From Astropecten irregularis (taxonomy: Eukaryota > Echinodermata > Asteroidea > Paxillosida > Astropectinidae), in contig OZ020255.1 in the NCBI GenBank assembly GCA_963971285.1, positions 19,933,046-19,997,045 on the forward strand: a stretch of 64,000 nt of DNA, given 5' to 3'. This document shows positions 25,602-48,505 of the stretch, piece by piece; the first letter of the stretch is position 1, and every line of letters begins with the position of its first letter. A program made the translations under genes and the position numbers. The notes beneath the pieces were generated by a model. The model was given only the letters and a program-made list of their open reading frames with translations, did not search any database and had not been told where the DNA came from.

Positions 25602-25615
25602 GTTGCCATGGTGAT
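25602..25615 (+). promoter_or_regulatory. X-box-like RFX site, gene A promoter (proximal)
   Basis: GTTGCCATGGTGAT has a perfect left half-site and a 4 of 6 right half-site with the usual 2-base spacer. It lies about 207 bp before the start codon, almost the same distance as the site in gene B. Confidence 0.45.
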
Positions 25616-25821: not shown

Positions 25822-28800
25822 ATGGATGACTACTACGCCGATTTGTACCATGTAAGTCAAGTTTCTTTTGTTTCTATAAATTGTACCGTTAGAATCCGAA
25901 ATAAAAACTAAATGATGAAAATGTCTCTAGACTAAAATGTAATATTGTTTAGCAGTTATGCAAAGTTAAACAAAAACAAAATCGGGAAGAATATTGCTGG
26001 AGGTAAGCTTGTTCGTTTCATTTTGGTTGTAATCAACTGGGGCAGACAAACTGGTATGCATTTTGGTAATGGAGTTTTCGAAAAATAAGGAATCCTAGAT
26101 TTGATTTATTTTCTGCTTTTGTTAATTTCCTGTGTTCAGTATCCATAGCAACGATTCGTACTCGTGTTTGCTCTTTATATAATCAGTTTTGTTTTGTTTT
26201 GTTTGGTTTTTGTTGCTGTTGTTGTTTCGTCGTCGTCGTTGTTTTATTGATGTTTTTGTTTTTTTGTTGCTGTTGTTGTTTCGTCGTCGTCGTTGTTTTA
26301 TTGTTGTTTTGTTGTTGATTTGTCTGTTTGTTGATTTGTAGTGTTTGTTTTCCATCCCCAAGATGAAAATGGTATCTAATGTGAAGTATGAATCTGAAAT
26401 GGTCCCGCAATAATTAAACGCAAACGGAATTTTTTTCAATACTGCATTTTTTCGTTGGTGTACATTTTGTTAAAGGTAATACTGTATCATACTTCAGTTT
26501 TTATCAAAGAAATACAGATTCGTGTGCAAGAATATCAGACAAGGAAGATACAGTAACAGTAATCTGTGAAAATTGCAGCCCCATACCGAGCCCACTTTTT
26601 AAGAATTTGTTTAAGAATATTTTCACTTTTATTTGTGATCTTTAAAAGATCAAAAATAATTTTGGTCATTGGTTTTACTGTTGTCTGGATACAATTACAG
26701 CATTTCAGGCGAACACATTTCAACGGTATATGTTTCTACCACTACCATGTTTATACCCTGTAAGTTATAGGTAAATCTGTGAAGATTTCTGCTTCGGTAG
26801 GCTACCAAAGTATGATACTACTTTTAAAGACTGACGGTAGAAAATTCCAGAATATACTCATTCACTGTGGAAGGCCTTGTTACCAAATTACGATAATGAT
26901 ACTAGCATGTTCTTTCATAACATTAGCCACAAAAAATAACGAGCTGCTTTCTGGTAACCGAAAGCAGCAATTTGTCATTTATTATTCCACGGGGGAAACA
27001 AATGAAGGAGGTAATCAACGTGACAATGCGTGGGTGCTGTCTGTGAAGTAAACAGTAGCAATTTGTGTGTGTTCTCGAAGAATGATTACATTTTTTTTTT
27101 TTTTTTGTATTTTTGTATTTTTTTGTATGTTTTTTTGTATATTTTTTTGTATTTTTGTATTTTTTGTATTTTTGTATTTTATATGTTATCTGACTGACAC
27201 GGCTACCCACCATTATACATTTTTTTGTCATTTTAATGGATGGACGTTTGGGAGTGTCATGCAACCTTGTTAGGTCGATATATGTGGGTGTAGCAAAGAT
27301 ATATAACTCTAGACACAAAACGCACGCAACTTCGTGCTTCATTTTTTCGGAAAAAGGCACACACAAAACAAAACAAAATGTCTACAAACAAAATTGATAC
27401 AAAACAAACAAAAAACCAAACACCCCAACGAAGCTCTGTTTCGTTTTTTTTTTCAAAGAGCAAGCTTTCTACTTTTCGAGTGAAATTTTCACAACCTATT
27501 ATTTGGTCTTTGTTGTTTTGTTTTGTATTTATTTTTGTTTGTGTTTGCTTTAATGTTTGTTTTAGCTGTTTTTTTTATCCTTGCTATTTTTTTGCTTGAA
27601 TTTTTTGTCTTTTGTGTGTGCTTTCGTTTTGTTTTGTATTTATTTTTGGTTGAGTTTTTGTTTGGCATTTATATTAGTATTTATTTACTGGTGTTTTGTT
27701 CGGCTTGGGTGTCTTTCTTTCTTTTCTTTATTTCTTTCTTCCATGTTCTTTAATTCTCGGTGACGGTTCGCCAAAACAAGAGAACTGCATTTGTTCCTGT
27801 AATTTTTCATTTATTTAACATAACGTGTGAAGTGGACCGAGTAGTCCACTCTCTCTTCAATGAATTAAAGCAACAATGCTGATGGAAATTATAATGAGTG
27901 GGCTTTCTGCTAATTGCCATTAAAAACTCAATGACCTGAAAGACAAATTACACGGTTACACGATGACATGTACTGACAGGGAAAATGGGAGAGATCCATC
28001 CCAACCCACCTCATACGAAAAATATAAATAAAATAAAAAGACGCACACACGAGAGCATTTTCATCTTCAGGTAATTAAGCTTATACTCTGCGATTGTACA
28101 TGTTCAACTACCGCGACGTGTCGTCCAGAGCGCACTTAATTTAATTGGACAAGCTTAATAGCAAGTGATCCAATTGTAATGTCAGAGTATCAGGGCAAGC
28201 ACGGTGGGGAATATTGGAGGGGACGGGACATAATTCCTATTTCCCCGCGGTGGCAACAAATAAATAAATAAGCCAACAAGAGAATAATATATTTACCAAC
28301 TTCCTTTCATATTATGATAATATGATAATATGAATTGACACCCCATCCTGTACACACATTATCTCATATTTAGATACATGTACATACAAGACGTAAACCA
28401 CGTTATTACAGTGAAAGGACTTATCAATTTACATTTATGTGTAATTGAGATGGACTAATATCGTTCTTTGTTCATCTGCTAGCCATTTGAAATGTCACAT
28501 GAACCAATTACACGATGCGGGGTATATAGAAATTAATACCCTGTTTGGTGCATCAGCATAAATTCCCTTTTCCCATAATTATGCCCTGCTGAATTATAAT
28601 TTATGCACACTAGGGAAATGTGAGATAATGCTATTCTAATAATAACTAATTACTCGTACAAAAGAGTGGTGGGTTGAAAAAAGGCCAATCCCTCGCCAAG
28701 CGGCAACTCAAAATTTCTTGTCGTATCATCTTGTGAAACATTCTGTTGCTGAAAAGTAATTAGATCATAGGTAGTGATTCTTTTGGGTGGGTGGGGCATT

Positions 28801-31800
28801 TATTCCAATTGTCAAATTTAAAGGAAAATGTTCTAATGCGATAATTGCAATTTAAATCAACTGGGGCGATCTTTTTAGAATAACCAATTAATGCATTTAA
28901 TATTTTATCTTTAAAATAAAGGACAGCATTGTCTTTTTTCAGAGAGAAATATTTCATAAAAGTTATTGTGTTTTTTTTAACCGAAAGTACTTAACCGTGT
29001 TTTCGATCCTTTCTGGTTATGAACATTTTCATTATTTTGTAATGTAAATCCGCCCAGAAATAAGGCTAAAAGCCACTCTAGAAAAGAAACCACATGACAA
29101 AAACAAGAATAAATTCAGAGGAGCTGAGGTTAGAAATTGACATTCCTCTTAAAGCACTCGCGATTTTAGGAAGGAAGGAAAAATGTACCAGGTAAAGAGC
29201 TCCAAAGAGGTGTGGTAGGAGGGGAAAAGCTATTGGAATTGATCTTTGGTCGAAATTATCAATTTGTTTTAGATGTTATGGTTGCTATGAACATTCGCTT
29301 GCTAAACAAAGCAGGAAAAACAATGGCCAAAACCTGCTGCGACCTCAAACTTCACTCGAGACCCGGCAGCTTTTAATTAATTTCTACTATACAAAATTAT
29401 TAATTAGACAATCCATAGGTACAGCTCATAGAACCAAAGACACAACAAAATCGACAAGTTATGTACACTAAGTCTTATTGATGTGCTCACCTGTAATGTA
29501 TGGTTTCAGTGTGCACTGGCTATATGGTGTATAGCTGCAGCTTTACGTATACCATTCACCCAACATGTGGTGTAATGATGTTTACATTTGAAATGATAAT
29601 AATAATGTTGAATACATTGAAATAATGTACAGTGAATCCATGTCAGTTACACCTAGGTCGAGTCGTACGGATAATCCAGGATCTGTTCTTCTCATCTCAT
29701 ATGTCATATTATTGTTATTGTTATTGTTATTTGTCTATTGCTTGCAGCTGCAAGGTCAAGCATCTTTATTCAGGTTGTCAGTACTTCAAATCTTTGCTTA
29801 TTTTTCTAAATAGGTTGACAACATTCGGCTCCTGGCTGTATCGTATTTTCTTTGTAAATTATTTATTGTTTCTGGGATTTTCTTAGCTACTTTGTTTTGG
29901 TTTATTTTGCTTTTTGGCGTTTGGGTGTGTGGGGAGGGGGGCTTTATTTCTAGTTCACATTAATCCAATCTTTTAAAATCTGGCACTGTGGAAACAATGG
30001 ATTTGTTACATGCCACTTTTATGTATGATTAAATATCACAGTATTTTAAATACCGAATCCAAAAAAAAAACGGTCTACTACACTCGACGCGCTACGACGC
30101 TGTATTCTCATTTACATGGTTACCAAGCCACGTCAATATATCGCCCATTCTGACCGAGTGCCTATAAAACCCGTGGATTATTATTAATCCATGCTTACAA
30201 CGCTACCTTGCATTATTGATCCCTTACGAGATCAATGATATTATTATTCCCTGTATATAATTACAACATCGTAACAATAAAGTGGCATGTAGGAAGCATA
30301 AACGGGCTTCATTATTATCATCACCCAAAATGCCGAAAACGCAAACTGGTGTTCTTATGTTTGTTTGGTTGTTTGTTTGTGCGCTCCCTTATTCAAGCCC
30401 CGGATGTAGTTCTACCTCCATGCATCAAACCGTGAGCCATAAGCCATTTCTCAGTTGCCTGTTACTGCAACATGGATTGTATACCAAATGAAGCCCTAGC
30501 TGAGCCTGAGCCAAACTTCGGTAAAATGGCCGTCTACACATCGCAAGCTCAGGGGAGCATGTCGGCGATGCGTTATATCGCTCCGAATTTGCAAATTATT
30601 ACATGCGTAAAAGCCCAAACAAACGAAAACATACAATAATTGTCTCATTTTTGTCAATGGAGAGGAATCCTACATTTGCATTTGTTTGTTTGTTTGTTGG
30701 GGTGTTTGTTTGTTTGTTTGTTTTGCCAAGCGGTACGTACGTTGCTCGCCTCAGTGAGACAAGGCATTGCCACCACCTCATATTACAGTCATGTATATTT
30801 TCTTTCTGCTTGGTTGCATGTATTTATCTGTTACGCCAGATGAATGCTCATCTCAGTCAGACATGACATTGCCATCGCATTCTACATTTTGAATGTTTGT
30901 TTGTCTGTTCTGTCAGGTGGTTACTCACCCGAGTGAGACATGACATTGCCATCGCATTCTACATTTGTCTGCTTGTTTGTCTGTTCTGTCAGGTGGTTGC
31001 TCACCTCAGTCAGACATGGCATTGCCACCATCTTCTACATTTGCCTGATTGTTTGTCTGTTCTGTCAGGTGGTTGCTCACCACCGTGAGACATGGCAATG
31101 CCACCAATTCATTTATCTGGTTAATTGACTGTTCTGTCAGGTGGGAGCTAGCCTCAGTGACAGAATGTCATTGGCCCCGGCTGTTGAATATTTTCCTCAA
31201 CTCTGTTTTGTTTCAGTCAAGAGAAACCATTTTGTCATCAGTATCACCTAATTTTCATCCTATTTATTGAGGGGTTTTCAGTTTCAATACACAATTGAAG
31301 AACAGTTTTTAATTGCTTGAAGTTATGAGAACCTGACGTTTTCAATCCTAGAGAAGGATCTTTCTCAAAAGCATTTTTATTATTCCACGAAAACCACGAT
31401 GGCCCACATATTATACTAGCCACACAATAGTAACACCAACACTTTAAATATTTTATGAAAGTGCGTAATATATAAATTAAACAGCCTTTAAAAAAAAAAA
31501 CTCGAAATGGCGAGAATAATTTTCGAAAATTCAGGGGACAAAACAGACACAGATATGAAATTATAACGAAACGTACAAGTACATAATTATGTATTAAGTG
31601 TGTGTTATAATAATGATTGCTAGTTATTATTACTGAGAATTTGTTTGAAAGCGGCATGAAATATTGTAATGACCATTATGATAAGTTCCACGCGTTGCCA
31701 TGGCAACGGATACTAATTACACACGGCACAACAGCATCAACACATGATATTATCTTGGGCAGTTTCTTTTTATAATGATGATAATGATGGTTATTTGTAT

Positions 31801-34800
31801 TTAATTGGGTGCTTTTTGGAAGATGGCGGTATTGTCCGGCCTTGAGTGACGTAGAAGCAGCAGCCGTGAAATTGCCGCCGATAGCTCCATGAGCTCCTGA
31901 TCAAACGGTGCATGCGACTGCGCGATCGACCAGCCAGGCATAGATAGAACGTACCGATATCTGTGACCACTGTTTAAACCACGTTCTGGAAAAAGGCATA
32001 ATTCGTCTGGAAATAATGGACCTTTCCCATGAAATATGCTAATGAGATACGCGCACGCGCAAATGCATCACTGGTTGGCAAGCTCCATGCCCTCTTTGTT
32101 GTATGTGGTACGTACGTGCCTAATGTAGCTGCAACTTTCTTGCCAACCAGTAGTGCATTTGCGCGTGCGCGTATCTCATTAGCATATTTCATGGGAAAGG
32201 TCCATCGGCCCAAACAATAATGACAATGATGACAACATTCGCTTCCAATAAACCGTAAACAAGTATGACACCTTTTGATAATTACATGATATTAATTCAG
32301 CATTCTGGCGATAGACTTGAGCACAAAAATGGAAATAGATAAAAAAAAATTACCTTTCTTATTTCCCTTGTTAGGAAACCCAGCTGAACCAAACTTTATA
32401 GACAGCAGTTTGGGAATACGATGATTAAAAGAAAACATTTCCGACATTAAAGTTATATCTAGTTATCAAGAAAAACAATATTAGAGCGACACGCACTTAT
32501 TTGATTTGTCGCCCTAAAATAGCTTTTGTTTCCTTAAAAAATGTCGTGCCGAATTCAGTTAAATAAGTTAACTCATAAAACAATACATCCGGCGGGTGTG
32601 TTACCAGTATTTTGCATAAAATTAAATAACAATAAAAACCTTCAAATCAATTTTTTTAAATAATATTAATGCATGCAACATATTTCTGGTCTGTTCTGTT
32701 TTAAATACTCCCTTCTATTAGAAAGACGTTCCGTTATTTATGTGTGATCTTTAGATACTAATTTACATAAATGTACTAATACAAATATTGTATATTTATT
32801 TTGGTTTTTTTTTTTCTATTTTAATCCGGTTTGATTTTTATGGTAATTTGTTTTGAATTATTTTGTTGTTGTTTTCTTTTGATTACAGGCTCATCCTTAT
32901 GAGATGCAAGGAGCGAGCGCAAAGGAGCAAAACTCTGGCATCCACATGCAGCTCCGCAGCTTCGACGAAGAGATCCGTCGAGGGGACTTCATCTTTTGCG
33001 TCTATCGTTTGCACCGACAGCTCCAAGTTATCACCCCCAAGAACATCACCCTGGATTCACTCAAGTCTCTTCAGGAGCTGGTCAGAAAAGCGCCGTCGTC
33101 ACCCCAGCACGGAACCAGCAGGGCCTACTTCTACGCCTTCTTCGACTTCATCGACAGCCTCCGGAGACTGACCAAGAACTTCAAGGAGCGAATCAACGCG
33201 GTCCTTGTCGAGATCTTTTGCGACACACCTTTCTTACATTCGAAAGATATTCACACCCCGGACGAGTGTCCAATGAAGAGTCGGGACCAAGGGCTATCCT
33301 CGGACTCGCTGATGGAGAGTGGCGCACCTTGTTGGCAACTGTCGTGCAATGTGGACGGTCTGGAACGCACGGTCGGCTGCATGCAGCTCCTTCTTGAAGA
33401 GCCTAAAATCGATCAGGATCTCTTTGATGACAGCTCGGCCGTGAAGATCTACCAGTACAGGGACTGCAAGCGGTTCCAAAACGTCCTCAGGCTGGTCCCT
33501 GACGTGCTGTACAAGGGTAGGATGGCCACCATCCTGGCAAGGGCCTGCTTGTACAAGGCGCTGAATATCCGGCAGAATCCGCTCGGGAACCCGGCATCTG
33601 AGAGGGGTTTTTCGTCGTCGGGATCGCCGGATGAGGTTCTAACGGCAACACTCCCCACCGTCAGGGAGAAGGAGAAGACCTCTAGCAATCTGAGGAATGG
33701 GACAAAGAACCAACGGGTAGTCCCCAAACCGCCACCAACACGCAAGTCGAAGCCGACTAGCCTGAAGGACATGGACGAGGAGCGGATGTCTTACGTCCTG
33801 AAGCGGAGCCCTTCTTATGTCCAAAAAGGTTATGGCAACCAGGACAGAGGCCCTAGGTCCAAGTTTATTCCCCAGTCGAAAGCTTACAAGAAAGATGTCA
33901 GCCCGGACCCAGATGAATTAGAGGAGCTGGACAAGGAAGAGACATCTTCTCAGAAGCTTGATTCCTTCAAGATGAGTAGAAGACAAAAAGGGATGAGACC
34001 CACGGTTGGAAAGCCAAGAGATGGTGAGAGCGGAGAGAAGTCACCCCAGACCGACGGTGGAGGAGATTACAATGATGACATCCTGGGTAGAAGCGGCGAG
34101 TACGGCACCTCCTCGGTCACCGAGCTGCCTGACCTGACAACCGGTAGAAATAAACGGGACCTAGGCACCCGAGGCAAGCCCAAAACGGTCACATCAGCTG
34201 GGAGTGAAGAAAACCTGAGGATGCCTCTAATCCGCAGCGATGGGGTTGGTAAAGACAGACGCCAGCCCAAGGACAGGATGACAAACACTCGGGAGGAGCT
34301 GCAGACCAGACGCAGACTGGAGACACAAGGTAGAGATGACAGTCTGGATGATCTACCCACCATCGACCAAGGCATCGATGGCGAGGAAGATGAATCGCGC
34401 GACCAAGCCCCGCTCTCCTGGCAAGAAAGGAAGCTGGAGAAGCTGCGCAAGACCTTAGAAGGGCTCATCGAGGACAAGGAGAAGGCACGAGTGGCTCTGA
34501 AGCGCCTGACAGCCATGAAAGATGACCTGACTACGATGGTAGACAAGTATCGCGGCAGCTACTACCTCAAGCGAAACCTGCAGAAAGGAGTGGCGCAAGT
34601 GACCAACAAGGCTCAAGCATGGAAGGATGACGCCAAGAGCCTGGACAATAAACACCAAGTCTTGGCAAAAGACTTACGACTGGAAATTAAGCTGAATGGA
34701 ATGCTCTACAGGTAAGCCAGTGCATTTTCAATATCAGAACCTGGGCCATGGTGCTATGGAAGATAACCTCGCAATGATACTTCTAACAAGTCACATGTGT

Positions 34801-35412
34801 GTAATGATCACGTTTACATTTCAATCGAGAAAAACATTATGTAAGACATTATCATTATTGTTTTTCTTCAGATACAAAAGCATACTGGATAAGAGGATAG
34901 AGTACATGCGTGACCTGGTACAGGAAGAGCGCGCTGAAATCGAGGAACTTGACAACGGGCTCGCAACCTTGAAGCAGACCACAGACAAGATGCCCTACTA
35001 CGGCCTACCACACGACCAGGACGTTGAGGACTTTGAGGCGGAGTTTGGTTTGGGCTTGGGCCATAGCTGGGGCATGGGCCACGGCTGGGGCATGGGCATG
35101 GGTATGGGTATGGGCATGGGCATGGGTCCTGGCTGGGGCTTGAGCCACGGCTTAGGCTACCGGTACAGGGACTTGGGCAGGAGCCTCCCGTCGCTGGCCT
35201 CGCTCCAGATGATGCGCGATGAGGAGCTCATGCTAGGTCGCAGCTTCAACGGCAGATACGAAAAGTCCCTCTGGGATGCCCCCAAATGGGAGTCCTACGA
35301 CAGCCTTTGGCTTTTGGGTCATGAAGACATGCAGCCATGTCCCTGTCGGGTCCCGGGGGAGGTCGCCGAAGCGGGATCAGAGTACTGGGGGAGATTCCCC
35401 CTTGGGTTCTGA
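25822..35412 (+). CDS. Gene A: unrecognised three-exon coiled-coil protein, paralogue of gene B (797 aa)
   Basis: Exons 25822-25851, 32889-34711 and 34872-35412 join to 2394 nt without a stop. Exon 1 encodes MDDYYADLYH and ends at a GTAAGT donor (phase 0); exon 2 begins after TTACAG with AHPYEM; intron 2 splits an Arg codon (phase 2). The ATG in exon 2 at 32904 would also open the frame, but exon 1 is preferred because gene B has the matching exon. Residues about 31-235 form a helix-rich domain shared with B. Residues 236-515 are charged, Ser/Pro-rich and probably disordered. Residues 520-662 are a coiled coil. Residues 677-710 are a Gly/Met/Trp/His run absent from B, and 720-762 a conserved block (DEELMLGRS, then a YEKS..WD motif). 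No signal peptide or membrane segment. I do not recognise the family. X-box-like sites upstream suggest a ciliary role (inference). Existence of the gene is well supported, the function is not. Confidence 0.85.
26200..26330. repeat. 54-bp tandem duplication in gene A intron 1
   Basis: TTTTTGTTGCTGTTGTTGTT followed by TCGTCGTCGTCG occurs twice, 54 bp apart, inside a G/T-rich simple tract. Confidence 0.8.
26470..26827 (+). mobile_element. TTAA-flanked short element, copy 1
   Basis: A 358-bp element bounded by TTAA on both sides, with diverged inverted ends (AGGTAATACTGTATCATAC left, GTATGATACTACTT right) and a central palindrome around TTTAAAAGATC. It shares its whole length with the copies at 38309, 44899 and 45264. 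No coding capacity. TTAA target duplications suggest mobilisation by a piggyBac-type transposase (inference). It lies in gene A intron 1. Confidence 0.8.
27090..27182. repeat. T-rich tract of TTTTTGTAT units
   Basis: An unbroken T run followed by irregular repeats of T4-10 GTAT over about 90 bp, in gene A intron 1. Confidence 0.85.
30661..31165. repeat. 76-77 bp minisatellite in gene A intron 1
   Basis: ACATGACATTGCCATCGCAT and close variants recur at 30861, 30938, 31014 and 31090 (spacing 77, 76, 76), each followed by TCTACATTTG and then TGTTTGTCTGTTCTGTCAGG and TGGTTGCTCACC. An older, longer unit is seen at 30759. About six units. Confidence 0.85.
31318..31376. mobile_element. Fold-back family, short inner fragment, gene A intron 1
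   Basis: ACCTGACGTTTTCAATCCTA and AGAAGGATCTTTCTCAAAAG are in the same order as in the 41071 copy. About 60 bp remain. Confidence 0.5.
31694..31707 (+). promoter_or_regulatory. Perfect X-box palindrome in gene A intron 1
   Basis: GTTGCCATGGCAAC is a perfect 14-bp palindrome and a full match to the RFX X-box. It lies about 1.2 kb before exon 2, so it could be an intronic enhancer or an alternative promoter. Gene B has a comparable site in its own intron 1. Confidence 0.5.
32017..32204. mobile_element. 188-bp fold-back element with 66-bp near-identical arms
   Basis: Arms at 32017-32082 and 32139-32204 differ at only 2 of 66 positions. They include TTTCCCATGAAATATGC and the Z-DNA-prone tract ACGCGCACGCGC. 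The 56-bp spacer contains GTACGTACGTGCC. It lies in gene A intron 1, about 690 bp before exon 2. High arm identity suggests recent origin or arm conversion. Confidence 0.8.
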
Positions 35413-35830
35413 ATGTGAGAATCTAATAATAACAACAATAATAATAATAAACCACTTTTATATAGCGCAAATCACAATCAAACATGTTTTAAGCGCTTGT
35501 AAGAAAGAAGGAGAAAGAAAGAAATAAACATGGACATCTAGAAGATTCACATAAACACAGTCAAAAATATCAGAATAAACCAAAACAATCAATTTAAGAA
35601 TAGATGTGTTTTAAGGAGCGCCTTAAACATTTACTGTTCAACAGTACCAGCTAGCTTGATGTTCTCTGGAATAGTGTTCCAGAGTTGTGCTGCTGCTGCT
35701 GCTGAAAAAGCTCTACACCCATATGATTTTGTTGAAGTATGGGGGCACACCAATTGAAACTTGGATCTGACAAGATGAGGCAAACCGCCATATTAAGCAG
35801 CCACCAAAATAAGGTTTACATCCAAGCTGT
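35413..35830. repeat. Probable interspersed repeat directly after gene A
   Basis: Starts with an AAT microsatellite and TTTATATAGCGCAAATC, continues through TTCCAGAGTTGTGCTGCTGC. Words of this type (short trinucleotide run, ATAGCGC, TCCAGAGTT) are typical of dispersed repeats in marine invertebrates as far as I recall; no second copy is in this window. Confidence 0.35.
35446..35451 (+). promoter_or_regulatory. Possible polyadenylation signal of gene A
   Basis: AATAAA occurs 33 bp after the gene A stop codon, at the end of an AAT-repeat tract. Because it belongs to a simple repeat it may be coincidental. Confidence 0.3.
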
Positions 35831-37589
35831 TACCCTTGACTTTTATACCCACTCTGCATGCTAAGTCCCTTTCATCAAGTGCCTTGAATTAGCTCATATG
35901 TTTCAATTGATAGTTATATTTTTATTTTTCTCGTCTAAACAAATGGTCATTGAAAAACCAAAAACCAAAAAACACAATATGCGTCACAAAACAAGGGAAA
36001 ATGTCAGGAAAAAGTAAAAATAAAAATACATAAGAGAATAACATCAGAACACAAAAGGAAACATGAAATTAAATGACGAATTAATGTACAGATCTGTTGA
36101 TAAACAATTTTAGGTTAGATTTAATTAAAGTTGTCACAGTGGCTGAAATATTTTGCCTTGTTATCAATGTTAAATAATTATATACTCGTGTAATCCTCTG
36201 CATTTACTTTATCAATATAAATAATATTATAGAGGTGTGAATAATATGAGAATATGAATGAAAATAATTATTTTTGAATGAATTATTTTACTCTACTTTA
36301 AAGTAACACAAAAGTTACAGAATTTTATCCCTTGTATACTATTTTTACTTTCATTCTTTGATATTTTTCAAATTTATCTTGATTAAGAACAAATAATGCG
36401 CAATTTTTTTGTCGGATGAGAGAAACTGAAACAATCGTTTAAAAATCTGTCTGTCTTTTGATCTAACATATTTTCATTTGATTCTAGTTTTTTTTTTCCG
36501 TTGTCATTATTGAGATATTTTTAACTTTTCTTTGCATGTATGAAGTTATGGAGCCAGTAGATAATTATTGCAAAATGTTGGAACAAAAAGCCGAACATTT
36601 TATTACCGTTTTCGTGTGAATTTCTCAACCAAATCGATTTATTCATTGTAAACTGATTTTATGTACTACTAACAGTTGCACATGTCATGGCATGATATTT
36701 TTCTCTGTTTTCTGTTTTCACTTTTCTTTTTTTTTAGAACAAACATTTCACTGAATCATTTGGTTTTGGAAATGCCATACCTTTAAGCTATTTTGTGGAA
36801 ATGACATCATATTAGTGATATGACATATAAGAAGAGACACCACATCATTTGTTGTTTGTTTTTATTATAAATGACTGCGTTCCTACTGCATTTTACAGTT
36901 ACAGTCAAAACCAGCTGCATTTGAATACTGAACACCATTTATTTTACAATGGGAAATATTGCACGGAAATATTAGTTCATAATTGACATTTTCGAAAAGT
37001 ATAAGCTTTTAGACAGACCAAAACGAAATATTTTGGTCCCTTAACGATCTCTATCATTTACCCCCTCTATTAGTTTAAATGCATATTATCGTAATTTCAT
37101 TTGCATGTTGAATTTGATGTTAATTACACAGACACATCTAATAGATTAAATTCGCACAGATGTACTCAGTGTTTGTTCGAAAATGTATCGTTTTTGCAAG
37201 TATTTCTGTTTCAAAGTCCAAGTTTCATCAAAGATAGAAAAAACGACTAACACTTCTCCAAAGATGACAAGAAAAATCTCACAAGCAAAGGACGCGGTGT
37301 TTAAGAAATCATCTAAATTCAAGTGCAATGATTATTAACTTATTGGCAAACTTGAAATGATTCAAACAATTGTCCAAATCATCTCAAATACTAGTTTGGT
37401 TTGTCTACATTCCCAGGGCCATGTACATGAGGCAAATTTTTCACAGGCAACTTGGAGGCAACCAATTGTAGTGTATGCAGCAGGAACACTATTGAAAGTG
37501 CAGAAGACATTATTTTGTGTTCCCATCCAGGGTAGATTTGTAACTTGTCAATGATTGCCCGCGGGGAAAGGTTGGCTGTAAATTGCCTG

Positions 37590-37883: not shown

Positions 37884-38028
37884 CAATGGGAGACTTTGGA
37901 GAACCGGTCTTCAAGTCAACAGCGCACGCGCAAACCATGTGCGTGCAATTGTGAGCATGCGCGCGTTGTTTTGCGCGTGCGTGCGCGTGCGCTGTTGACT
38001 TGAAGAGGTTCTCCAAAGTCTCCCATTG
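37884..38028. mobile_element. 145-bp fold-back element with alternating purine-pyrimidine core
   Basis: CAATGGGAGACTTTGGAGAA at the left is mirrored exactly at the right end; the arms run about 48 bp with a 3-base indel, then meet a core rich in GCGCGTGCGTGCGC. It resembles the 32017 element in design but not in sequence. Confidence 0.75.
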
Positions 38029-38308
38029 AATTCTATAATACAGAATGATCACTGTGCATAGCGGAACGGGAACATACCGGTACTAAGTTGCAGCAATGAC
38101 CTCTGACAATTAACATCTGGTCTACTGTGACTGGTATACGGACATTAATTACTTTGTGCATTGGAATGAATACCAGACAAAACCCACAAATTATTCAGAA
38201 CCACACATCTATAAAAGAGATTATACATGGCGTCTCCACAAACCTACTTCATTACGTTACTTCCGGCATGCAAAGCTTCGAATCCTAACCACAAATTATT
38301 CACAAGGT

Positions 38309-38681
38309 TTAAAGGTAGTATCATACTTTGGTTTTTGTCAAAGAAATACAGATTCGTGGACAAAAATATCAAGGAAAATACAGTAACAGTCATCGGTGAA
38401 AATTTCAGTCCCATATACGGTGCCCACTTTTTGAGAAAACAGTGAAAAACGACCACAGTATTTCTTGAGTGTTTTCTCTTTTATTTTAAAATTTGATCTT
38501 TTAAAAGATAAAAAAGATTTTCGGTCGTTGTTTCACTAATTTCTGGATAAATACACCATTTCAGGCGGAAATATGTTAACGGTAGGTTTCTACCAGCACC
38601 ATCTTCATACCCTGTAAGTTATAAGAAAATCTGTGAACATTTCTGTTTTGTTTTCTTACCAAAGTATGATACTACCTTTAA
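38309..38681 (+). mobile_element. TTAA-flanked short element, copy 2 (best preserved)
   Basis: A 373-bp element, TTAA-AGGTAGTATCATAC at the left and GTATGATACTACCT-TTAA at the right, so the terminal inverted repeat is perfect over 14 bp. The centre is palindromic (GATCTTTTAAAAGAT). Same orientation as copy 1. It lies between genes A and B. Confidence 0.85.
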
Positions 38682-39989
38682 AGAAGTGCCATTAGCATTT
38701 ACATGATCAGTCCCCTACGCCTGGTATTTTAATATGGCGCCCTCTTGTGACAAGCTTTAGTACTCACCTTGTGATGTGCAGCATGATGAACTGGTGATCA
38801 TTTCATGTGGGCCGTCCATGGCCAAAGGAACTCCTAGCTCTCCTGCAGGCCTTGTGCCAGGTCACATGTCCATTGATGCAAGGTCAATGGTCGAATCGTT
38901 TCCTAAAGCCTCGCTCTGAAACACTGACCACTGATAAATACCAACCTATAAATACCAAACAGAAAAAAAAACTTTCCTTTTATCTGTTACATACCTCAAA
39001 AAGAATGATAAAAGGGTAATGATGAAAGAAATAAAAACGACTTTGCTTGTCTTTTTTTATCACACCTCAATTAATACCCTCAACAAGTTAACATGAATTT
39101 CATACAGCGAACAATTAAGACTAAGGCCAAATTTCTGTTTGATTTCGCAACAAGGGGCAAAGCAGTTTTATTTCATGGCATTTCTAAACTAAAATTGATT
39201 ATAAACATTGGAGCTTTCATTTCCCAATTTTAGACCCATCTCGCAATTTAAAGAAAAGTTACGAATTTCCGCGAGGCAGGATTTTCATGATAAGTTCTTA
39301 TTTTGTGAATTTTTGATAAATTTCGTATCGGTTTCACGTGATAATGTTGCAATATTTATTTGTGAATTGTGTATCATTAGTCTGGGGATGTAACGCTCGA
39401 CCGGTCTTTTATTAATATCAGAATGAATTATCAATATCTTAAAAGCTAAGAGCGAAAATATGACCTCGCTCTGCCTCACTCATGCGTATTTATAAGGTAG
39501 TCTTATAAATTACATTTTTCTAATGAAACTATTGTTGCTGTAATGTAGGACCACAATTCCATTTTGTGCTGTTTCCCGGTTTAAAAAAAAAAACAGAAAA
39601 AAACTTCACAATTATAGACAAAGTTTTCAAACCACCCACTCAGTAAACATATTATATTACCAGAAATACAAATTGAAAGAAATGTGGGAAATTCATAAAA
39701 AAATAAAAATAAAAAAGTACCCTGTAAAAGGAATAATTTACAGTGAAATTTGGACATGCTCACAGTGCAATTTGAGTCATTGTACAAAGTTTGGGTCAAA
39801 GTGCAAATTGGTGACGATGCAATTTGGTCACAATGCAATTGCCGCACTATCGTTATCTTTAAAGCACAGTGACTGTACACGCACTCAGTATAGTCTCAAA
39901 TTGCCCACACGAGCTGGTACTTTGACCCATTAGCTCTCTTGGCTCTGACCATGGAGAAAGGGGGAGCTCTTCCTTCCTCCATGCTCTGA

Positions 39990-40400
39990 CAAGGCGCGCA
40001 ATAACGATTATAAAACGAAGAAGGCAATTCTCGGTATTAAAATCGATGACTGCAATTTAAAATGAGCGCCCTCTCTGTTTATAACTCTCCATCCCTCCCT
40101 TGTTATTTGCGCCACGCATGCACGAACGACCACAACATTACAATAGCGGCGGGGTTTGTTTATCGGCACAGCGGTTGCCATGGCAATAATTCATCAGACA
40201 TGCTGGAAGGGAAAAGGACGCATGCTGATGAGAGCCATTTCGACGTACGCTCCGTCGCATCACTCATCAACAGGTTATGCTAGCTTGTAACACCGACCAA
40301 TATTCATTCATCAACATCTGACAGCGAAGCCGAATTTCAGTGACGCAGGGGAACAATAACACTTTGTTTTTCCCGAGGCTGCCAGCTGGGCAAAGCAATC
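39990..40400 (+). promoter_or_regulatory. Probable promoter and 5' UTR of gene B
   Basis: GC and CpG content rise before the ATG; an X-box-like site and GAGCGCCCTCTCTG lie here. Start context ATCATGG. The exon 1 donor GTAAGTCAA is identical in genes A and B over nine bases. Confidence 0.45.
40174..40187 (+). promoter_or_regulatory. X-box-like RFX site, gene B promoter
   Basis: GTTGCCATGGCAAT matches the RFX X-box at 11 of 12 positions and lies 213 bp before the gene B start codon. Flanking sequence is CpG-containing and less AT-rich than the surroundings, consistent with a promoter. Confidence 0.55.
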
Positions 40401-43400
40401 ATGGAGGATCACGAAACTTACTACGTAAGTCAACACTCCTTTATTTCACCCAAATCGAATAGATGATCCCCCATTTTATTGAGCAATTGACTCAATTGAG
40501 GGAACAGACCGATGAAAAGCAATGAGAAAACAATTATTATTCATTATAATTATAATAACGTAATGTGAATTCCCACGCTTTTGTTTTGTTTTGGTTCAAA
40601 GGTATAATACATGATTGGTAAACGTCACAGAACAGCACTCACACTTTGACTGATCCAATACTTGAAATGATAAACCTGTGAACATTTGAGCGCAATAGGA
40701 CATCGGAGTCACGAGAAAAATAGCGAAAATCTGTACACGTTTTTGTTTGGGTATGTTAATCCTGTAATGTACCTAAGAAGAATGTATAGTAGTAGGAATA
40801 ATTAGTAAAATCAATAAGCGATTCGGCAATCGACAAAGCTCAGATAAAATGACAAATACAAGTATGCTAAAACAAAATAAAATTACTTACCATCAAATAA
40901 CTACAAAGGAAACTGACTGGTTAATTTGAAGTCATTGAAAATTGAACAAAGAAAAATTGACTGGAAAAGGATTCGAACCGGAAACAACCTGTCAGTTTCC
41001 CTTGTGGTTATTTGATGATTATGACTAATGTCAATGCTATACGCGTATCTGAAATAGGCCTATATCAAATTCTTGGAGTTAGGAAGGCTTGACGTTTCGA
41101 TCCTGAGGCTCTGAGAAAGATCCTGCTATAGGAACGAAACGTCAGACCCTCCTTATTCCAAGAGTTGGAGGCCTTTTTCTGCATGTATTTGTTCTTGTAT
41201 TCTCTTTGACGTGCGTCTCTGTATCGTGTGTTTAATTATTTAATCTTGGGGCAGACAACACATCTGAATCGATCGCATACCGTCAAGTGCATTAATAAAA
41301 AGGGCAGGCACGTGCACTGTCTGTTTGCATTGGTCCTTTCTTTCTTTCTTTATAATTTGAATTTACTTTTTATTTCATTATTTTTACATTGTATATGAAT
41401 TCTTATATTTTTGTAGACTCAGAATTATTTCCATTATAAAATCGAGCAAAGACAATCAAATAACGTGCACTCGATAATAATGCAAGTGACACCTCATGAG
41501 CGCTGCCAGCATTATGGAACAAGCTGTCCTGTATGAAGGGGCACAGCTTATTTTAGGGGTCATTGTTTTATTTTTTTTTCTATCATAATTATTCGCCCAA
41601 AACAAGGTGGGGAAGAGGCAGCCCCGCCCTCCGTTGAGCACCTGCCCCTCCCCTCACACAACCGCCACAATATTCTCTGTATAATGTGCCAGTCCCACCC
41701 TGGCTCGGATCGTTTCCCCGTCCATTATATGCCCCGTGTTACAGGCTGCAAGGCACCACAAAGAAGCTACTCGAACATTCTCGTGATATTTGTGTAAACC
41801 ACAAGCGCCAAAATTATAAACTTGACACATAGGATAAGCCCCTTGATTCCCATTACGGTTCAAATACCTCCTCATGCTTGGAGTGTCAGTGACAAACAAT
41901 GGCGATTCCATCAAACTTCATAAGAGGCGGTAAAGTAAGAACCGGTAGGGCTTAATTATAACTATGTGTGATCGATGATTTCAACTAACAGTTTGCAACT
42001 TTGAATGGAAAGTCGGCAGGATAGAGATTGCCCAACTATAAATCAATAATGTAACATCTCATCCGATGTATTCCTAAAAATCTCAAATCTTACGAGATTT
42101 CCCGAGAGGTCTTAGAAGTGTCATGTTCAGTTCAGTTCAGGCTTTGGAAAACATCCTCAGTTTATGGACTGCAAATTGTTTCTTGGTCACAAGATGTATA
42201 AAGGACTTTCATTTCAACAGAATCATAAAGAAAATGTGCCCTAATCTGGCGATTTTTTTAATAAAACAACAGTATATACAGTCAACCGTTTTCGTGTTTT
42301 CTTGCTCGCTTAATTTCATTCCGTTTGTTTGTCTGTTTTTGTTGAATTTATTTTGCTGTTTGTTGTTCTTTTCTTCTTCTTCCTTTGTTTTGTTTGTTGC
42401 AGCGCCCTGGCCCTCGTAACAGGCGGGTACGTGATGTAAAGAAGATTGTTATTGAAGGCTAAAACAAAAGGAAATAAAGAAAAAACTCAGCAACATTATT
42501 TGGGTTAAAAATTCCCGTTAAAAGCGAAGAATATTGCTTGATGAATCAACACAAATGAAATAAACAACAGATATCAATAAAGAAAACCCTCCTACCCCTC
42601 GGCAAGCAAACAAACTTGTTCATCAAGGAAACAAAATTCAAAAACACTAAATGCTGGTGAAAACATACACACACATATAAATGAAGTAAGAAGAATATCT
42701 CATTGAGATGGTCGAAACGTCGGGTCATAATTATTATACTATTGCGTGTATATGACATGACATTGCAATTCAGTAAGCTATTTGCTGCGTGCAGTTCGTT
42801 AATTAATCAAATAATAATAGGAAAATCAATAGGTTACACGTCGGTGTTCCAAAAATAAAATCCGCTCTTTTGTGAAGAAGGAATTCGTCTCTATAGCACA
42901 CGATTTTCCAGGGAGGGCAATCATTGCATCGACCATACACTGTGTGCATCTATTTCCTCCTTATACTCTAACGGAAAGAGTGTAATTGACGAAAATCTCC
43001 CTTCTTTAAAAAATGAAGAGGTGAACTGAATGCGGCATGGAGGGATGCGTTGCCGTGGCAACTTGGATGCAAGGTCTCACTATTACTTTAATATGCAGAA
43101 ACGTGCAATTCGCCCTATTTGCAAGGTTAAGGTCTCGTGCACAGTATAGCTATAGCCCTATACTCGCAGTTGAGTACCCGTGCTCATGGACTTGCCTAAG
43201 CAATTAGAAGGAACAGTTGCATTTGCCGAGTCAAAGCCATCATGTGGGAGATTGGGGGGGGGGGGGGTGACGGGCGATTTGTATTCATGGACGATATAGC
43301 TGGGAGAAAAACAAACAAATAAATAAGCTAGTTACCCTCTTGAAGCGTATTTGCAAAGCATGACTTAACGCGGTCAATTCACATGTCTGGCTGCATCTTT

Positions 43401-46400
43401 TGTTCAATGACATGATATTGTAAATTGCTCATGATTCTCATTTTATTCACTGAAATGAGATACGAACCAAAATATTGTGAACAGCCTAAAACAATTAATT
43501 AATGCCTCCATTTGCAATGTGCACAATGCCAAATTGTGTCCATACTTGTACGAGATCTACATGTATAATGCCTTTCACATCCTCACTATACATGAGGGTG
43601 AAAATTAACCTCGGAGTTTTCAAACATTTTTGGCTAGTTTTGGAGCGACATGAAAAGAAAAGACAAAACAAACATTTTTCTCGTGCAAACAAATTAAGAA
43701 AGGTTATGTTTGTGTAAGGATAACAATGTAAATTTTAAACAACATGTTTGATATTAGGGACTCTGCATTTGATTTTGATTTTAATGGAATTCATTCAGAT
43801 CTGCATTTTGATCTCTGGTTGTGGAAATCTTGTATCGTTTTTTTTTTATTCCAGCTTTGTTTCTGAAATTCTACTTATTGCCATGATTGTTTTATGTGTC
43901 GGGCCACGGTGGAGGATTACAAGCTTAAAACTTTTCCTGTCTCATGAAATTAGCAAATTAATATAAAATATTATGCTTATTTCATTTTTATCATTTTTTT
44001 TATGAAATGACGAATAAACGGTCTTTCAATTATTGTATCAGTCTTCAGCACATGAGTTTCAAATTGCGACAGCGGAAATTTTTTTTTTTTTTAATAACAC
44101 ACGGCGCAACTAGATCATACAGACCAGAAACAGACGCCATTACATGGTTTTAGCAAACACAAACATTCATGTTTACAACCTTTTGGACTGAAGTCAACAT
44201 TTCTCTCATGAAAAGGCATACATCATTTTAGGAAAGTAGGCCAATTATATTCAAACATTTATAGAGACTACAAAATATCGGCGATGTTTGATATTTCTCG
44301 CTCATAAAATAATCATGTAGGCCTGTAGGCACAACGTACCGTATGGTGTTTCAAGAGTACAGAATGAGACCACCATACGGTTCTCTCCATGAATGAGTTC
44401 AATACCATGCATGATCAGAGACAAGAGAGGTTAAATTAACATGACAGCTCATCGGAACTGTGAGCAGTGGAGTGCTGTTGTTTCATATTGTGTGTGTGTT
44501 GGTCTTTCTTGCATTCGATTATCATAATTATGATTATTATTATGGATGAGTTTTGGAGGCCTTATGTAGAATTTAGAGACAACAACAGCTGCATGGATGC
44601 ATGTGCATGAATTTCTCTTTTCCCAACATAATTTTTTTATAACCAGTATCTGGATAATGTGAACGCATAAAATTTTAAGTGCATCGATTGTCATGTTCGT
44701 TATTGTTTGTCTTTGAAGAGGAAGCAGGGAATAGCGTGTTTGTGTATGTCGTCTCTGGGGACGCTTTTTTATTATTATGATGTATATCATTGAGATCAGC
44801 TAAGGCGTTTTGGGATTGTTTTTCAAATACAGTTTGATTGAAAAAGGGAGGAATATGTTCTACAGAAATAGAAAAACATTCTAGAATGAATATTTCTGTT
44901 AAAGGTAGTATCATACCTTGGTAAGACACCAAAACAGAAAAATGTTCGTATAACTTTACGTATAACTTTCAGTGTATGGAGATGGTGCTGTTAGAAACCT
45001 ACCGTTAAAATGTTTCCACCTGAAATGGTGTATTTATCCAGAAATTAGAAAACAACGACCGAAAATCTTTTTGATCTTTTAAAAGATCAAAAAATAAAAG
45101 AGAGAAGACTTAAGAAATACTGTGGCCGTTTCTCACGATTTTCTCAAAAATTGGGCCCCGTATGGGACTGAAACTTTCACAGATGTTTGTTACTGTATCT
45201 GTCTTGATATTTTTGACCATGAATCTGTACTTCTTTGACAAAAACCAAAGTATGATTCTACCTTTAAAGGTTCTATCATACCTTGGTAAGAACCCAAAAC
45301 AGAAATGTTCACATTTATACGTAGGCCTATAACTTACAGGGTATGAAGATGGTGGTGGTAGAAACATACTATCAAAATGTTTCCACCTGAAATGGTGCAT
45401 TTATCCAGAAATTAGTGAAACAACGACCGGAAATCTTTTTGATCTTTTAAAAGATCTAAAATCAAAGAGAAAAGGCTTAAGAAATAATGTGGCTGTTTTT
45501 CACTGTTTTCTCAAAACGGTGGGCACCGTATGGAACTGAAATGTTCACAGATGACTGTTACTCTATCTGTCTTGATATTATTGCCCATGAATCTGTATTT
45601 CCTTGATAAAAACCAAAGTATGATATTAACTTTAATATAAAAAATGGGGTTTCTGACCGAAATTATAAAGTGTTGTTTCTCAATTCCATGCCAATTTTGT
45701 TTTCTACCTTTAAAATCAGGTGTATAATATTATGGTAAAAGACTGGTTCATTATAAATCTTGTTTGTTTGTTGTTGTTGATGTTGATTTTACAGACCCAC
45801 CCTAAGGAAATGGTAGGAGTCAGCAAGGCGAAGCAGAACTACGCCATGCACCGGCAGCTAAGCTTCTTTGAGGAGGAAGTGGAGCGGGCGGAGGGTCTCT
45901 TTTCTCTGGATCGCTTCTTCCGAAAACTCCGGGACGCCGTGCCGCGGAATTGCAGCGTGGACTCCCTGGATTCCCTCCGGCAGCAAGTGGTGGAGACGAA
46001 CGATGGGAATTCACCCCAACAACGGGCCAGTAAAGCCTTCTTCGAGATTTTCTTCGAGTACATCGATCGTCTCCGTATCCTGAATAAGACGTTCAAAGAG
46101 CGAATCCACGCAGTCTTGTACAAGTACTTCTTCGATCCTGCGTTTATGCAGCTGAGGGACCTCCACATGAAGAAGGGAAGTCCATCGAAGAAAGGTCCAG
46201 GAGGGATATCACCGGACTTGGTAGAGGAGGTGGGCGAGTTGTGCTGGCAGGTATGCTACAGCATCGACAGGCTCGATAACACCGTTGAAGAGTGGCTGCT
46301 GCTTCTACGAGAGTCTGAAATCGACCACAGCCTCTTCGACGACAAATCGGCCTACAGCGTCCGCAAGTTCAAGGACTGTGCCCGATTCCAGAACGTCCTC

Positions 46401-48505
46401 CGGCTGACGCCCGACGTGCTGGTCAAAATTCGGAGGTCAGCCGAGCTGGCCAAGGACTGGTGGTACGCATCGGAGATGATTCGGCGAAAGCTGGCAGGTC
46501 ACCAGGCACCCGACAGCGGCCTATCGTCGTCATCCGAGATGGAGGCTTCTTCGGCTACACCGCAGTCATCTCGTCCGGAGGCCAACAAGCGCCAGAAAAC
46601 CATCAAGGATCACCCCATAACACAGAAGCCGACGGTCTTTCGAAAGAAGGCGAAGAAACCGGAGGATAACACATACGTTATGGGTGAAACTGCTGATCCA
46701 TACAGCCCGGAACCTCCAAGCAGCCAGAGGGTTTCTGGTGAGACGACAAGACGTCCGAAGGTGAAACCATCGAACCAACCCTGGGACAAGAAGAGGCACG
46801 ATCTTGTCCCAGATGAGATGTCGGAGTATGAGAAGCAACAGGATAATTCCCGATCTCATCACAAAAGACAGTCCAAAAAGCCCAAGGTGCGCTCGAAGGC
46901 TACCCAAACTGAGTTTGAGGAAGATGAGCAATTCGAGGAGGATGAGGAGATTGAGGATATTGAAGAGTCTCAACAAAGTGATAAGGCTCAGCAGACTGAG
47001 CAGTATGCTCAGAGTGAGGAGGAGGAGGAGGAGGAGGAGGAGTACGAGGAACCAGCACCGATTCGGAAGACTGAACTCAAGATGCACAAGCAGCCCAAGA
47101 GGGGCAGACCAACAGCCGACAATTCTAGGGACGCAGGTGCTCTGAAACGCGAGAGAGGCCAACAGACCCGTGACCACCGGATGGACAAGAAAATATCACC
47201 CCTACAGGAAGAAAAGACAGACGAGAAAATCAACAAAGCAACTGAGGCGCCAAAACTTAAATCCACCCAAAAGGATAAGCACCAGCGGGGTCAAGGGGGC
47301 AAGAATAAGAATCGAAGAAGCAATCACCCTCAGAAGGATGCAGGCGACAAGCCGCCAACAGTCCGCAAAGATGGCAGAGGTAAAGGGAGGCCCAATGACC
47401 AAACAGGGAGCGCAGAAGACGCCATGGAAGCTCTCTCTCTCGAACAGGATGTCAAGAGCAAAGATGACGAATCTACTGGTCAGTCCCCGATATCTTGGCA
47501 GGATAAGAAACTCGAGTTACACCAGAGGGTGGAGGGGCTCATCCGCGCCAAGGGGGTGCAGCGCGCCGGGCTCAAGCTTCTGACGGCCATGGCGGACAAC
47601 CTGGCCAAGGAAATAGCCAGATACCGGGGTAGCTACCATATCAAGCGAAAGCTGCAGGCAAGAGTGGCACTACTAAGCGACAAGGCGAAAGGATGGAAGG
47701 AGGAGACCAGGCTTCTAGACAATCAACTTCAAGATTTGGAAGAAGACTTGGCAGAAGAAATACAGATAAATGGATCGCTTTACAGGTAAACAGAAAATAC
47801 CATTTATCCCTTTTTCTTGCCAGCTCTGCCACTCTGATCTGTTTTCGGATGCATACCACTCAAGCTGAGAAATAATGAACACGAGAATAATGTGTGTATG
47901 GAACTAAAGGTTTGCTGTAATTCATACCATCCAGTTCCAAAACTACACAATTACTCATGAGACTGTATTTGTGTTATATTTCCAGATACGGGGACATTAT
48001 GAGGCAGGATAGACTAGCTCACTTGAACGACTTGGTGCGGGAGGAGACAGTCAGAATCATGGATCTAGAGGAGGACCTGGAAGTCATGAGCAACGCAGCG
48101 GACAAGCTGGCCCACTACGGCAACCCCTCCGACACGGACCTGGAGTTGGAAGAGTTTGAGGCCGAGTTCGGCAGCCGGGCCGGGCGGCGGGTCAGGAAGA
48201 GCTACGAGAACCTCAGCGGCAACCTGCGGCCTTACCGGTCATTGCAGACCCTACGCGACGAGGAGCTCCTAATGGGAAGAAGCCTCCGGAATAAGTACGA
48301 GAGGTCCATCTGGGACGGCCTCAAGCGGGAGTCCTGCGACAGCACGTCCTCCGCAGTGAGTCTCGACGACAGCGTCATTGTTTCCTCCCGGGCCCCTCCT
48401 CCACCGGCGAAGAAATCAGACGGAACACGGGGCGGGAACAAAGGACGGAAGAAACCAAGGAAGGGGTACGTGAAAGACAATTTCTCGTCATCGGATGAGG
48501 AATAA
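40401..48505 (+). CDS. Gene B: unrecognised three-exon coiled-coil protein, paralogue of gene A (844 aa)
   Basis: Exons 40401-40424, 45795-47785 and 47986-48505 join to 2535 nt without a stop. Exon 1 encodes MEDHETYY and ends at GTAAGT (phase 0); exon 2 starts after TTTACAG with THPKEM, matching AHPYEM of gene A; intron 2 is phase 2 inside an Arg codon as in A. Residues 28-240 are the conserved helical domain (shared pattern KDC.RFQNVLRL.PDVL). Residues 241-570 are highly charged and probably disordered, with a nine-Glu run near 416-424 and basic stretches. The motif KATQT at 376-380 fits LC8 dynein light chain docking, and DSGLSS at 248-253 fits a beta-TrCP degron. The coiled coil spans 575-710. 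The conserved block DEELLMGRS lies near the C-terminus, followed by a tail with PPPP and Lys-rich sequence ending SSSDEE. Function unknown; a ciliary or centrosomal scaffold is a guess from the coil, X-boxes and LC8 motif. Confidence 0.85.
40891..41017 (-). mobile_element. tRNA-derived short element with 27-bp terminal inverted repeats
   Basis: CATCAAATAACTACAAAGGA at the left mirrors CCTTGTGGTTATTTGATG at the right (27 bp, few mismatches). Read on the minus strand, the inside contains a B box (GGTTCGAATCC), then CCAGTCAATTTTTCTTTGTT, the same tail as at 62348. The A-box half is deleted. It lies in gene B intron 1. Confidence 0.7.
41071..41184. mobile_element. Fold-back family, inner part, in gene B intron 1
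   Basis: Inverted halves around CTTGACGTTTCGATCCTGAG and GAACGAAACGTCAGACCCTC, with AGAAAGATCCTGCTA in the middle. It matches the inner region of the 61245 element, and lacks the outer arms. Confidence 0.65.
43049..43062 (+). promoter_or_regulatory. Full X-box in gene B intron 1
   Basis: GTTGCCGTGGCAAC has two perfect half-sites with a GT spacer and matches the RFX consensus fully. It lies 2.7 kb before exon 2 of gene B, parallel to the intronic site in gene A. Confidence 0.5.
44338..44381. repeat. 11-bp inverted repeat in gene B intron 1
   Basis: ACCGTATGGTG and CACCATACGGT, exact complements, are separated by 22 bp. Confidence 0.6.
44899..45267 (-). mobile_element. TTAA-flanked short element, copy 3 (tandem with copy 4)
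   Basis: A 369-bp copy in the opposite orientation to copies 1 and 2, in gene B intron 1. Its right TTAA (45264-45267) is the left TTAA of copy 4, so the two elements abut exactly and share one target site. Confidence 0.85.
45264..45635 (-). mobile_element. TTAA-flanked short element, copy 4 (tandem with copy 3)
   Basis: A 372-bp copy directly following copy 3 and ending only 159 bp before exon 2 of gene B. Its right end is decayed (ATATTAACT before TTAA). It may influence splicing of the acceptor at 45794. Confidence 0.85.

What the first reader, a model, noticed from the sequence alone, without database searches (positions are those of the whole stretch)
25822..48505. Tandem pair of an unrecognised coiled-coil family with identical gene architecture
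Genes A and B share a tiny first coding exon (10 and 8 codons), a 5-7 kb phase-0 intron, a large second exon, a phase-2 intron within the same Arg codon, and a third exon ending with a conserved block. N-terminal domain and coiled coil align along their length; the disordered middle does not. I know no named family with this layout. It looks like a duplicated, lineage-restricted or strongly diverged protein family.
Basis: partly seen in the sequence, partly recalled or inferred. Interest (0 to 1): 0.85.

Follow-up and report, generated by a model that had tools for sequence, protein, structure and literature searches.

The report
Duplicated echinoderm coiled-coil gene pair
Two neighbouring genes of an echinoderm (starfish-like) genome are old duplicates of one uncharacterised coiled-coil protein gene, and matching RFX switch sites at both suggest that they are used in cells with cilia.

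Summary
Genes A (25822-35412, 797 aa) and B (40401-48505, 844 aa) are tandem paralogues with three matching exons, a phase-0 intron 1 and a phase-2 intron in the same Arg codon; protein identity is 43-47% outside the linker. The host is an echinoderm by its mitochondrial code. A genome search with B's exon 2 lists no third member. No Pfam model reaches its cut-off and no PDB sequence matches convincingly. My own lead, the MIEAP/SPATA18 domain, failed: its model finds pieces on contigs C18 and C20, not here, and profile comparison scores like shuffles. New: a published strict RFX X-box motif occurs four times in the window, each time at this pair, 220/227 bp upstream of the two start codons and in the two first introns; looser scans are less clear. 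Best reading: an uncharacterised, RFX-driven, probably ciliary coiled-coil scaffold gene, duplicated long ago. The fold is unresolved (pLDDT 46 and 40). Presence in other animals could not be tested.

The parts
25555..25567 (+). Weak X-box-like site in promoter of gene A (spacer 1, one mismatch)
25602..25615 (-). Strict-motif X-box, promoter of gene A, 220 bp upstream of the ATG; the weakest of the four (3 mismatches to the palindrome)
25822..25851 (+). Gene A coding exon 1 (MDDYYADLYH), GTAAGT donor
31694..31707 (+). Perfect palindromic X-box in intron 1 of gene A
32889..34711 (+). Gene A exon 2: N-terminal domain, linker, most of the coiled coil
34872..35412 (+). Gene A exon 3: end of coil, conserved block, Gly/Met/Trp/His repeat (tandem repeats called at 35052-35139), stop
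40174..40187 (-). Strict-motif X-box, promoter of gene B, 227 bp upstream of the ATG (one mismatch to the palindrome)
40401..40424 (+). Gene B coding exon 1 (MEDHETYY), GTAAGT donor
43049..43062 (+). Strict-motif X-box in intron 1 of gene B (one mismatch to the palindrome)
45795..47785 (+). Gene B exon 2: N-terminal domain, acidic/basic linker, most of the coiled coil
47986..48505 (+). Gene B exon 3: end of coil, conserved block, basic tail, stop

Best explanation
SHOWN: A and B are paralogues side by side, each coding for a conserved N-terminal region (about 215 aa), a charged low-complexity linker, a conserved segment of about 150-170 aa with heptad-like hydrophobic spacing, and a conserved C-terminal block. 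SHOWN: each carries a strict-motif X-box 220 or 227 bp upstream of its start codon and a second in intron 1. INFERRED: one gene was duplicated in tandem long ago. INFERRED: an RFX factor binds both sites, perhaps looping the intronic element to the promoter as proposed for Rfx2 at cilia genes, so that the genes are switched on in ciliated cells (larval ciliary bands, epithelia) and/or sperm. INFERRED: the proteins dimerise through the C-terminal coil, with a helical N-terminal domain held off on a flexible linker, and act as a non-enzymatic tether or scaffold at the basal body or axoneme, A and B having diverged in linker and tail.
For: Gene structure and protein homology. Composition and heptad-like spacing (no control run). 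X-box: the strict published motif RTNRCC N1-3 RGYAAC (PMC2375033, passages seen) has 4 sites in 64,000 bases, 4 of 4 at these genes; 2 of 200 dinucleotide shuffles reach 4, mean 1.06. Within two mismatches of GTTGCCATGGCAAC there are 4 matches, against a shuffle mean of 0.29 and 0 of 100 shuffles with 4; within one mismatch there are 3, each at A or B, against 0.006 expected from base composition. The 169,064 bases of flank have 6 strict-motif sites and none within one mismatch of the palindrome. In blastn of the two 300-bp upstream regions the top match is the X-box itself (10 bp, offsets 81 and 74, E 0.066); around the intronic sites the top match is the X-box (16 bp, one mismatch, E 0.032; those windows were centred on it) and the others are 8-13 bp. 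PMC5245798 (abstract and passages): in Foxj1-bound regions of multiciliated cells Rfx motifs are equally present at promoters and distal sites, and Rfx2 is proposed to bring them together.
Against: The motif was chosen after seeing the sequence. A looser scan (spacer 0-3, up to 1 mismatch) is not enriched: 6 observed, shuffle mean 3.35, maximum 7 of 40 shuffles; with up to 2 mismatches 59 against a mean of 49. One of the four 2-mismatch palindromes (51979) lies in the TACO1-like gene, and 3-mismatch sites lie elsewhere too. A's promoter site is weak (3 mismatches). The real flank is richer in strict sites (6 in 169 kb) than the shuffles suggest. The blastn of A against B at E <= 1 did not list the coding exons either, so unalignable introns say only that the split is old. 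PMC2375033 says an upstream X-box alone does not predict RFX dependence; PMC5245798 says that few genes bound by Rfx2 alone rise in multiciliated cells. RFX factors also control non-ciliary genes (recalled). Full-length B matches no PDB chain at E <= 1, though the PDB holds a sea urchin sperm doublet model (8snb, seen). No expression or localisation data. Positive-control searches (tektin genes, genome-wide palindrome count) did not complete.
Confidence: 0.5

Rival explanations
1. The pair is RFX-regulated but not ciliary: coiled-coil cytoskeletal or scaffold proteins of neurons, secretory or other cells, where RFX factors also act.
For: Same X-box evidence; no convincing match to PDB chains; few genes bound by Rfx2 alone rise in multiciliated cells (PMC5245798 passage). 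RFX roles outside cilia are recalled.
Against: A promoter-plus-distal pair of RFX sites is the pattern reported for multiciliated-cell genes (PMC5245798 passages).
Confidence: 0.25
2. Strongly diverged relatives of the mitochondria-eating protein MIEAP/SPATA18, with the MIEAP-like domain moved to the N-terminus: a regulator of mitochondria built on a coiled coil and disordered regions.
For: By eye, the motif LCWQ...FDD..Y...NVLRL.PDVL resembles the MIEAP C-terminal pattern (C/W ... F.D ... VWPAL); human MIEAP also combines disordered regions and coiled coils (PMC10845071, passages).
Against: PF16026 gives nothing for A or B and in this genome lists 5 pieces on C18 and C20, none at A/B. hhalign scores 8.9 against the recalled human sequence (best of 200 shuffles 23.9) and 12.7 against a 3-sequence profile (60 shuffles, mean 13.6, best 21.6). 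Domain order is reversed.
Confidence: 0.07
3. The X-boxes are chance or relics and the genes are ordinary coiled-coil proteins of unrelated function.
For: Post hoc motif choice; looser motif not enriched; a weaker site lies in the TACO1-like gene.
Against: 4 of 4 strict-motif sites at equivalent places of two old duplicates, where they are the top shared non-coding words of the regions compared; none within one mismatch of the palindrome in 169,064 bases of flank.
Confidence: 0.18

Closest known systems
MIEAP / SPATA18 (Pfam PF16026)
   Same: Globular domain plus coiled coil plus disordered charged region; a vague motif resemblance seen by eye
   Different: No PF16026 match, no profile support, reversed domain order; MIEAP-domain pieces lie elsewhere in this genome
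RFX/X-box ciliary genes
   Same: Strict-motif X-boxes near the start codon and at a distal intronic site, compatible with the promoter-plus-distal pattern of PMC5245798 (passages)
   Different: No recognisable ciliary domain or homologue; expression and localisation unknown
Solved coiled-coil and axonemal proteins in the PDB (including the sea urchin sperm doublet, 8snb, seen)
   Same: A long segment with coiled-coil-like spacing
   Different: No sequence match at E <= 1 for full-length B; best Foldseek hit for the low-confidence model has E 0.6

Membership tests
MIEAP/SPATA18 | Match to Pfam PF16026 above its cut-off (27 bits) | tested here: not met
   no hit; 5 pieces on C18 and C20, none on C19
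MIEAP/SPATA18 | Profile-level relation of the N-terminal domain | tested here: not met
   hhalign scores within or below the shuffle range; only 2 and 3 sequences in the profiles
MIEAP/SPATA18 | Coiled coils before a C-terminal MIEAP domain (order of human MIEAP, recalled; coils and disordered regions in PMC10845071 passages) | tested here: not met
   conserved domain first, coil last
RFX target gene | X-box close upstream of the start codon, kept between related genes | tested here: met
   (25602, 40174); A's site is weak
RFX target gene | RFX binding and RFX-dependent expression | not testable with these tools
   no expression or binding data
Ciliary/axonemal protein | Homology to a known axonemal or basal-body protein | tested here: not met
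   (Pfam and PDB only; full-length A not searched in the PDB)
Ciliary/axonemal protein | Localisation to cilia or sperm | not testable with these tools
   no such data
Lineage-restricted family | Absent from non-echinoderm animals | not testable with these tools
   no eukaryotic genome collection; only the own genome

The most novel reading that the evidence does not exclude
A and B are the founding members of an echinoderm-restricted ciliary protein family with a new all-helical N-terminal fold, recruited into the RFX programme and then duplicated, each copy keeping the paired promoter and intron X-boxes while its other non-coding DNA turned over.
Probability: 0.2. Interest if true: 0.6.

Novelty: new member of a known kind. 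Interest (0 to 1): 0.42.

Why it matters
Animal genomes hold many unnamed coiled-coil genes (general knowledge). Here two diverged copies keep the same regulatory motif at matching places, which turns an anonymous gene pair into a concrete, cheaply testable ciliary candidate. If confirmed, it would give an echinoderm cilia or sperm component without a named family, and a neat pair for studying promoter-enhancer RFX sites after duplication.

Tried and rejected
MIEAP/SPATA18 homology: suggested to me by a motif resemblance recalled from memory; tested with Pfam, the genome's own MIEAP pieces and hhalign with shuffles; not supported.

Structure: two AlphaFold2 jobs on the two-sequence alignment gave pLDDT 45.8 and 39.7. 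Both models are helical but unreliable. The second model was not searched.

Relatives elsewhere: viral contigs and prokaryotic genomes gave none confirmed by tblastn, as expected for an animal gene. In 100 kb upstream and the 69 kb down to the contig end there is one tblastn hit at E 0.29, taken as chance. The genome protein search with B's exon 2 scored 14 of 14 candidates and listed 4 places; the one other than A and B (C8, E 1.4, 40 residues of the linker) was dropped as chance. Searches with A's exon 2 and B's exon 3 did not complete.

Alternative start of B upstream of exon 2 (a hydrophobic stretch in the same open frame): rejected because it covers the pyrimidine-rich end of the intron and A's open frame starts only two codons before its exon 2.

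Forkhead (FOXJ1-type) sites near the X-boxes: present, but the motif is common in the window, 227 sites or about 1.1 per 315 bases; not used.
Full report
Check of the observation. Rebuilding the exons gives open reading frames of 797 aa (A: 25822-25851, 32889-34711, 34872-35412) and 844 aa (B: 40401-40424, 45795-47785, 47986-48505), with GT...AG introns, intron 1 in phase 0 (7037 and 5370 bp) and intron 2 in phase 2 within an Arg codon, both in the context L-Y-R-Y. blastp with A as query gives E 5.6e-61 and 2.8e-50 for the two halves. Identity by segment is 43% (N-terminal domain, 215 aligned residues), 30% (linker, 232), 45% (coil, 164) and 47% (C-terminal block, 62). The third codon position is the least conserved in 5 of 5 segments compared, as expected for coding DNA under selection on protein. 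The tiny first exons score best of the 12 pairings compared, from 5 candidates in A and 3 in B; 3 of the 15 pairs, with a peptide over 25 codons, were left out. A codon-usage scan ranks the exons of A and B as the four top-scoring stretches of the window; that model was trained partly on them, so this is not independent.

Where it is. The window is base 19,933,046-19,997,045 of a 20.07 Mb contig (C19) in a 475.7 Mb assembly of 168 contigs. The mitochondrial cox1 on contig C168 has ten TGA inside the frame. In one search its four AAA codons fall at positions that I recall as conserved asparagine (IYN, INM, RNVN, LWN), its three AAG read as lysine, and its six AGA codons would be stops in the vertebrate code. 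AAA as Asn is the code shared by echinoderms and flatworms (table 9); I take echinoderm rather than flatworm from the look of the protein and the genome, which is recalled judgement. Contigs of about 19-20 Mb (C18-C20) suit a starfish with 22 chromosome pairs, but that step is recalled too.

How many copies. A protein search of the whole genome with exon 2 of B scored 14 of 14 candidates and lists B itself, A in two pieces (E 4e-59 and 6e-23) and one chance place on C8 (E 1.4). No further copy shows in the 100 kb upstream or the 69 kb down to the contig end (best E 0.29). So the family has two members here at that sensitivity. Searches with A's exon 2 and B's exon 3 did not complete.

What the proteins look like. 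The N-terminal domain is rich in hydrophobic residues (34-35%); the linker is charged and poor in them (12-18%); the coil has heptad-like hydrophobic spacing over much of its length, a measure for which I ran no control. Two low-confidence models are helical in the N-terminal domain (pLDDT 45.8 and 39.7) and support no fold assignment. The C-terminal block (EFEAEFG; SLQ..RDEEL..GRS....YE.S.WD..K.ES.DS) is shared. A alone has a Gly/Met/Trp/His repeat and B alone a basic tail.

No known family. No Pfam model reaches its cut-off for whole proteins or domains; the coil pieces draw weak hits, best E 0.011 at 16.2 bits against a cut-off of 34.5. PDB sequences give none for full-length B (E <= 1). 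For the N-terminal domain they give only weak hits, best E 0.16 for B alone and 0.023 for the profile, a 50-residue stretch of the chain named hypothetical protein BSU31320. My own idea, the MIEAP domain, failed each test that could be run. No eukaryotic protein database was on hand, so 'no relative in other animals' is not shown.

Regulation. The finding I did not expect is a set of X-boxes, the binding sites of RFX factors. The strict motif of PMC2375033 (passages seen) occurs four times in the window, 4 of 4 at this pair: 25602 and 40174, which lie 220 and 227 bp before the two start codons, and 31694 and 43049 in the two first introns. Of 200 dinucleotide shuffles 2 reach four sites (mean 1.06). 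A stricter count, within one mismatch of the palindrome GTTGCCATGGCAAC, gives 3 sites in the window, each at A or B, against 0.006 expected from base composition and 0 in 169,064 bases of real flank. The flank has 6 sites of the strict motif, or one per 28 kb. By that density the chance of one in each of two 300-bp upstream stretches is about 1 in 10,000 (my arithmetic); by shuffle density it is 2.5e-5.

Results against this reading. The motif was picked after looking. A looser version is not enriched (6 sites against a shuffle mean of 3.35, maximum 7). A's promoter site is weak (3 mismatches to the palindrome). One 2-mismatch palindrome lies at 51979 in the TACO1-like gene. PMC2375033 warns that an upstream X-box alone does not predict RFX dependence, while conservation does so better; PMC5245798 says that few genes bound by Rfx2 alone rise in multiciliated cells. 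Here the conservation is between paralogues: the top shared word of the two 300-bp upstream regions is the X-box (10 bp, E 0.066), and around the intronic sites, in windows centred on them, the top match is the X-box (16 bp with one mismatch, E 0.032) with 8-13 bp matches otherwise. These E-values are weak by themselves. blastn of the two gene regions lists a mobile repeat and short words and not even the coding exons, so the split is old and a kept 10-16 bp word stands out only against that background. Of the two other recognisable genes of the window, the TACO1-like gene and the gene with dsRNA-binding motifs, neither carries a strict-motif site.

Mechanism proposed. Rfx motifs are reported at promoters and distal elements of multiciliated-cell genes alike, and Rfx2 is proposed to bring the two together (PMC5245798, abstract and passages). 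A promoter X-box plus an intronic X-box fits that scheme. I therefore take the pair to be expressed in ciliated cells and/or sperm, and the protein, with no sign of an enzyme domain in Pfam, to be a dimeric coiled-coil tether. Regulation by RFX is likely, ciliary use is plausible, and the molecular role is a guess.

Verdict. A sound observation of an old tandem duplicate of an unnamed gene, with a modest but concrete regulatory clue. It is not a categorically new system. Whether this pair is already in print was not searched for, since it has no name; the eight literature searches concerned MIEAP, RFX, cilia and echinoderms.

Noticed in passing
51164-53731 (minus strand): TACO1/YebC-like gene in five open pieces with PF20772 or PF01709 matches, 4 of 5 over the cut-off.
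   Followed up: partly
58745-60775 (plus strand): Gene with double-stranded-RNA-binding motif pieces in four open frames (PF00035, 3 of 4 over the cut-off); from recall it looks like TARBP2/PRKRA.
   Followed up: partly
26485-26817, 38309-38677, 44903-45267, 45268-45640: Four copies (72-85% alike to the last one) of a roughly 370-bp repeat; two of the copies show 24-25 bp terminal inverted repeats (TTAAAGGTAGTATCATAC...): a miniature transposon-like family; two copies sit head to tail just before exon 2 of gene B.
   Followed up: partly
32016-32205 and 37884-38028: Two foldback elements (67-bp arms, 97% complementary; 25-bp and 22-bp arms, 100%).
   Followed up: no
30845-31158: Minisatellite of about four 76-bp units in intron 1 of gene A.
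   Followed up: no
35052-35139: Gene A has a Gly/Met/Trp/His-rich tandem repeat in exon 3 that B lacks.
   Followed up: partly
L002 (G000 C18:9945670-9945948) and L003-L006 (C20:11570466-11571826): The genome has a MIEAP-like gene on C20 (60% identical to the recalled human protein over about 40 residues near its end) and a second, diverged MIEAP-domain piece on C18.
   Followed up: partly
L028 (G000 C131:32162-33484) and L030 (C25:9951047-9952018): COX1 match with an open 552-aa frame and no stop on contig C131, perhaps a bacterial contaminant or symbiont; and a 345-aa cox1 stretch with 7 TGA on contig C25, probably a mitochondrial insertion.
   Followed up: no
62348-62420: tRNA-Thr (anticodon ggt), the one tRNA predicted in the window.
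   Followed up: no
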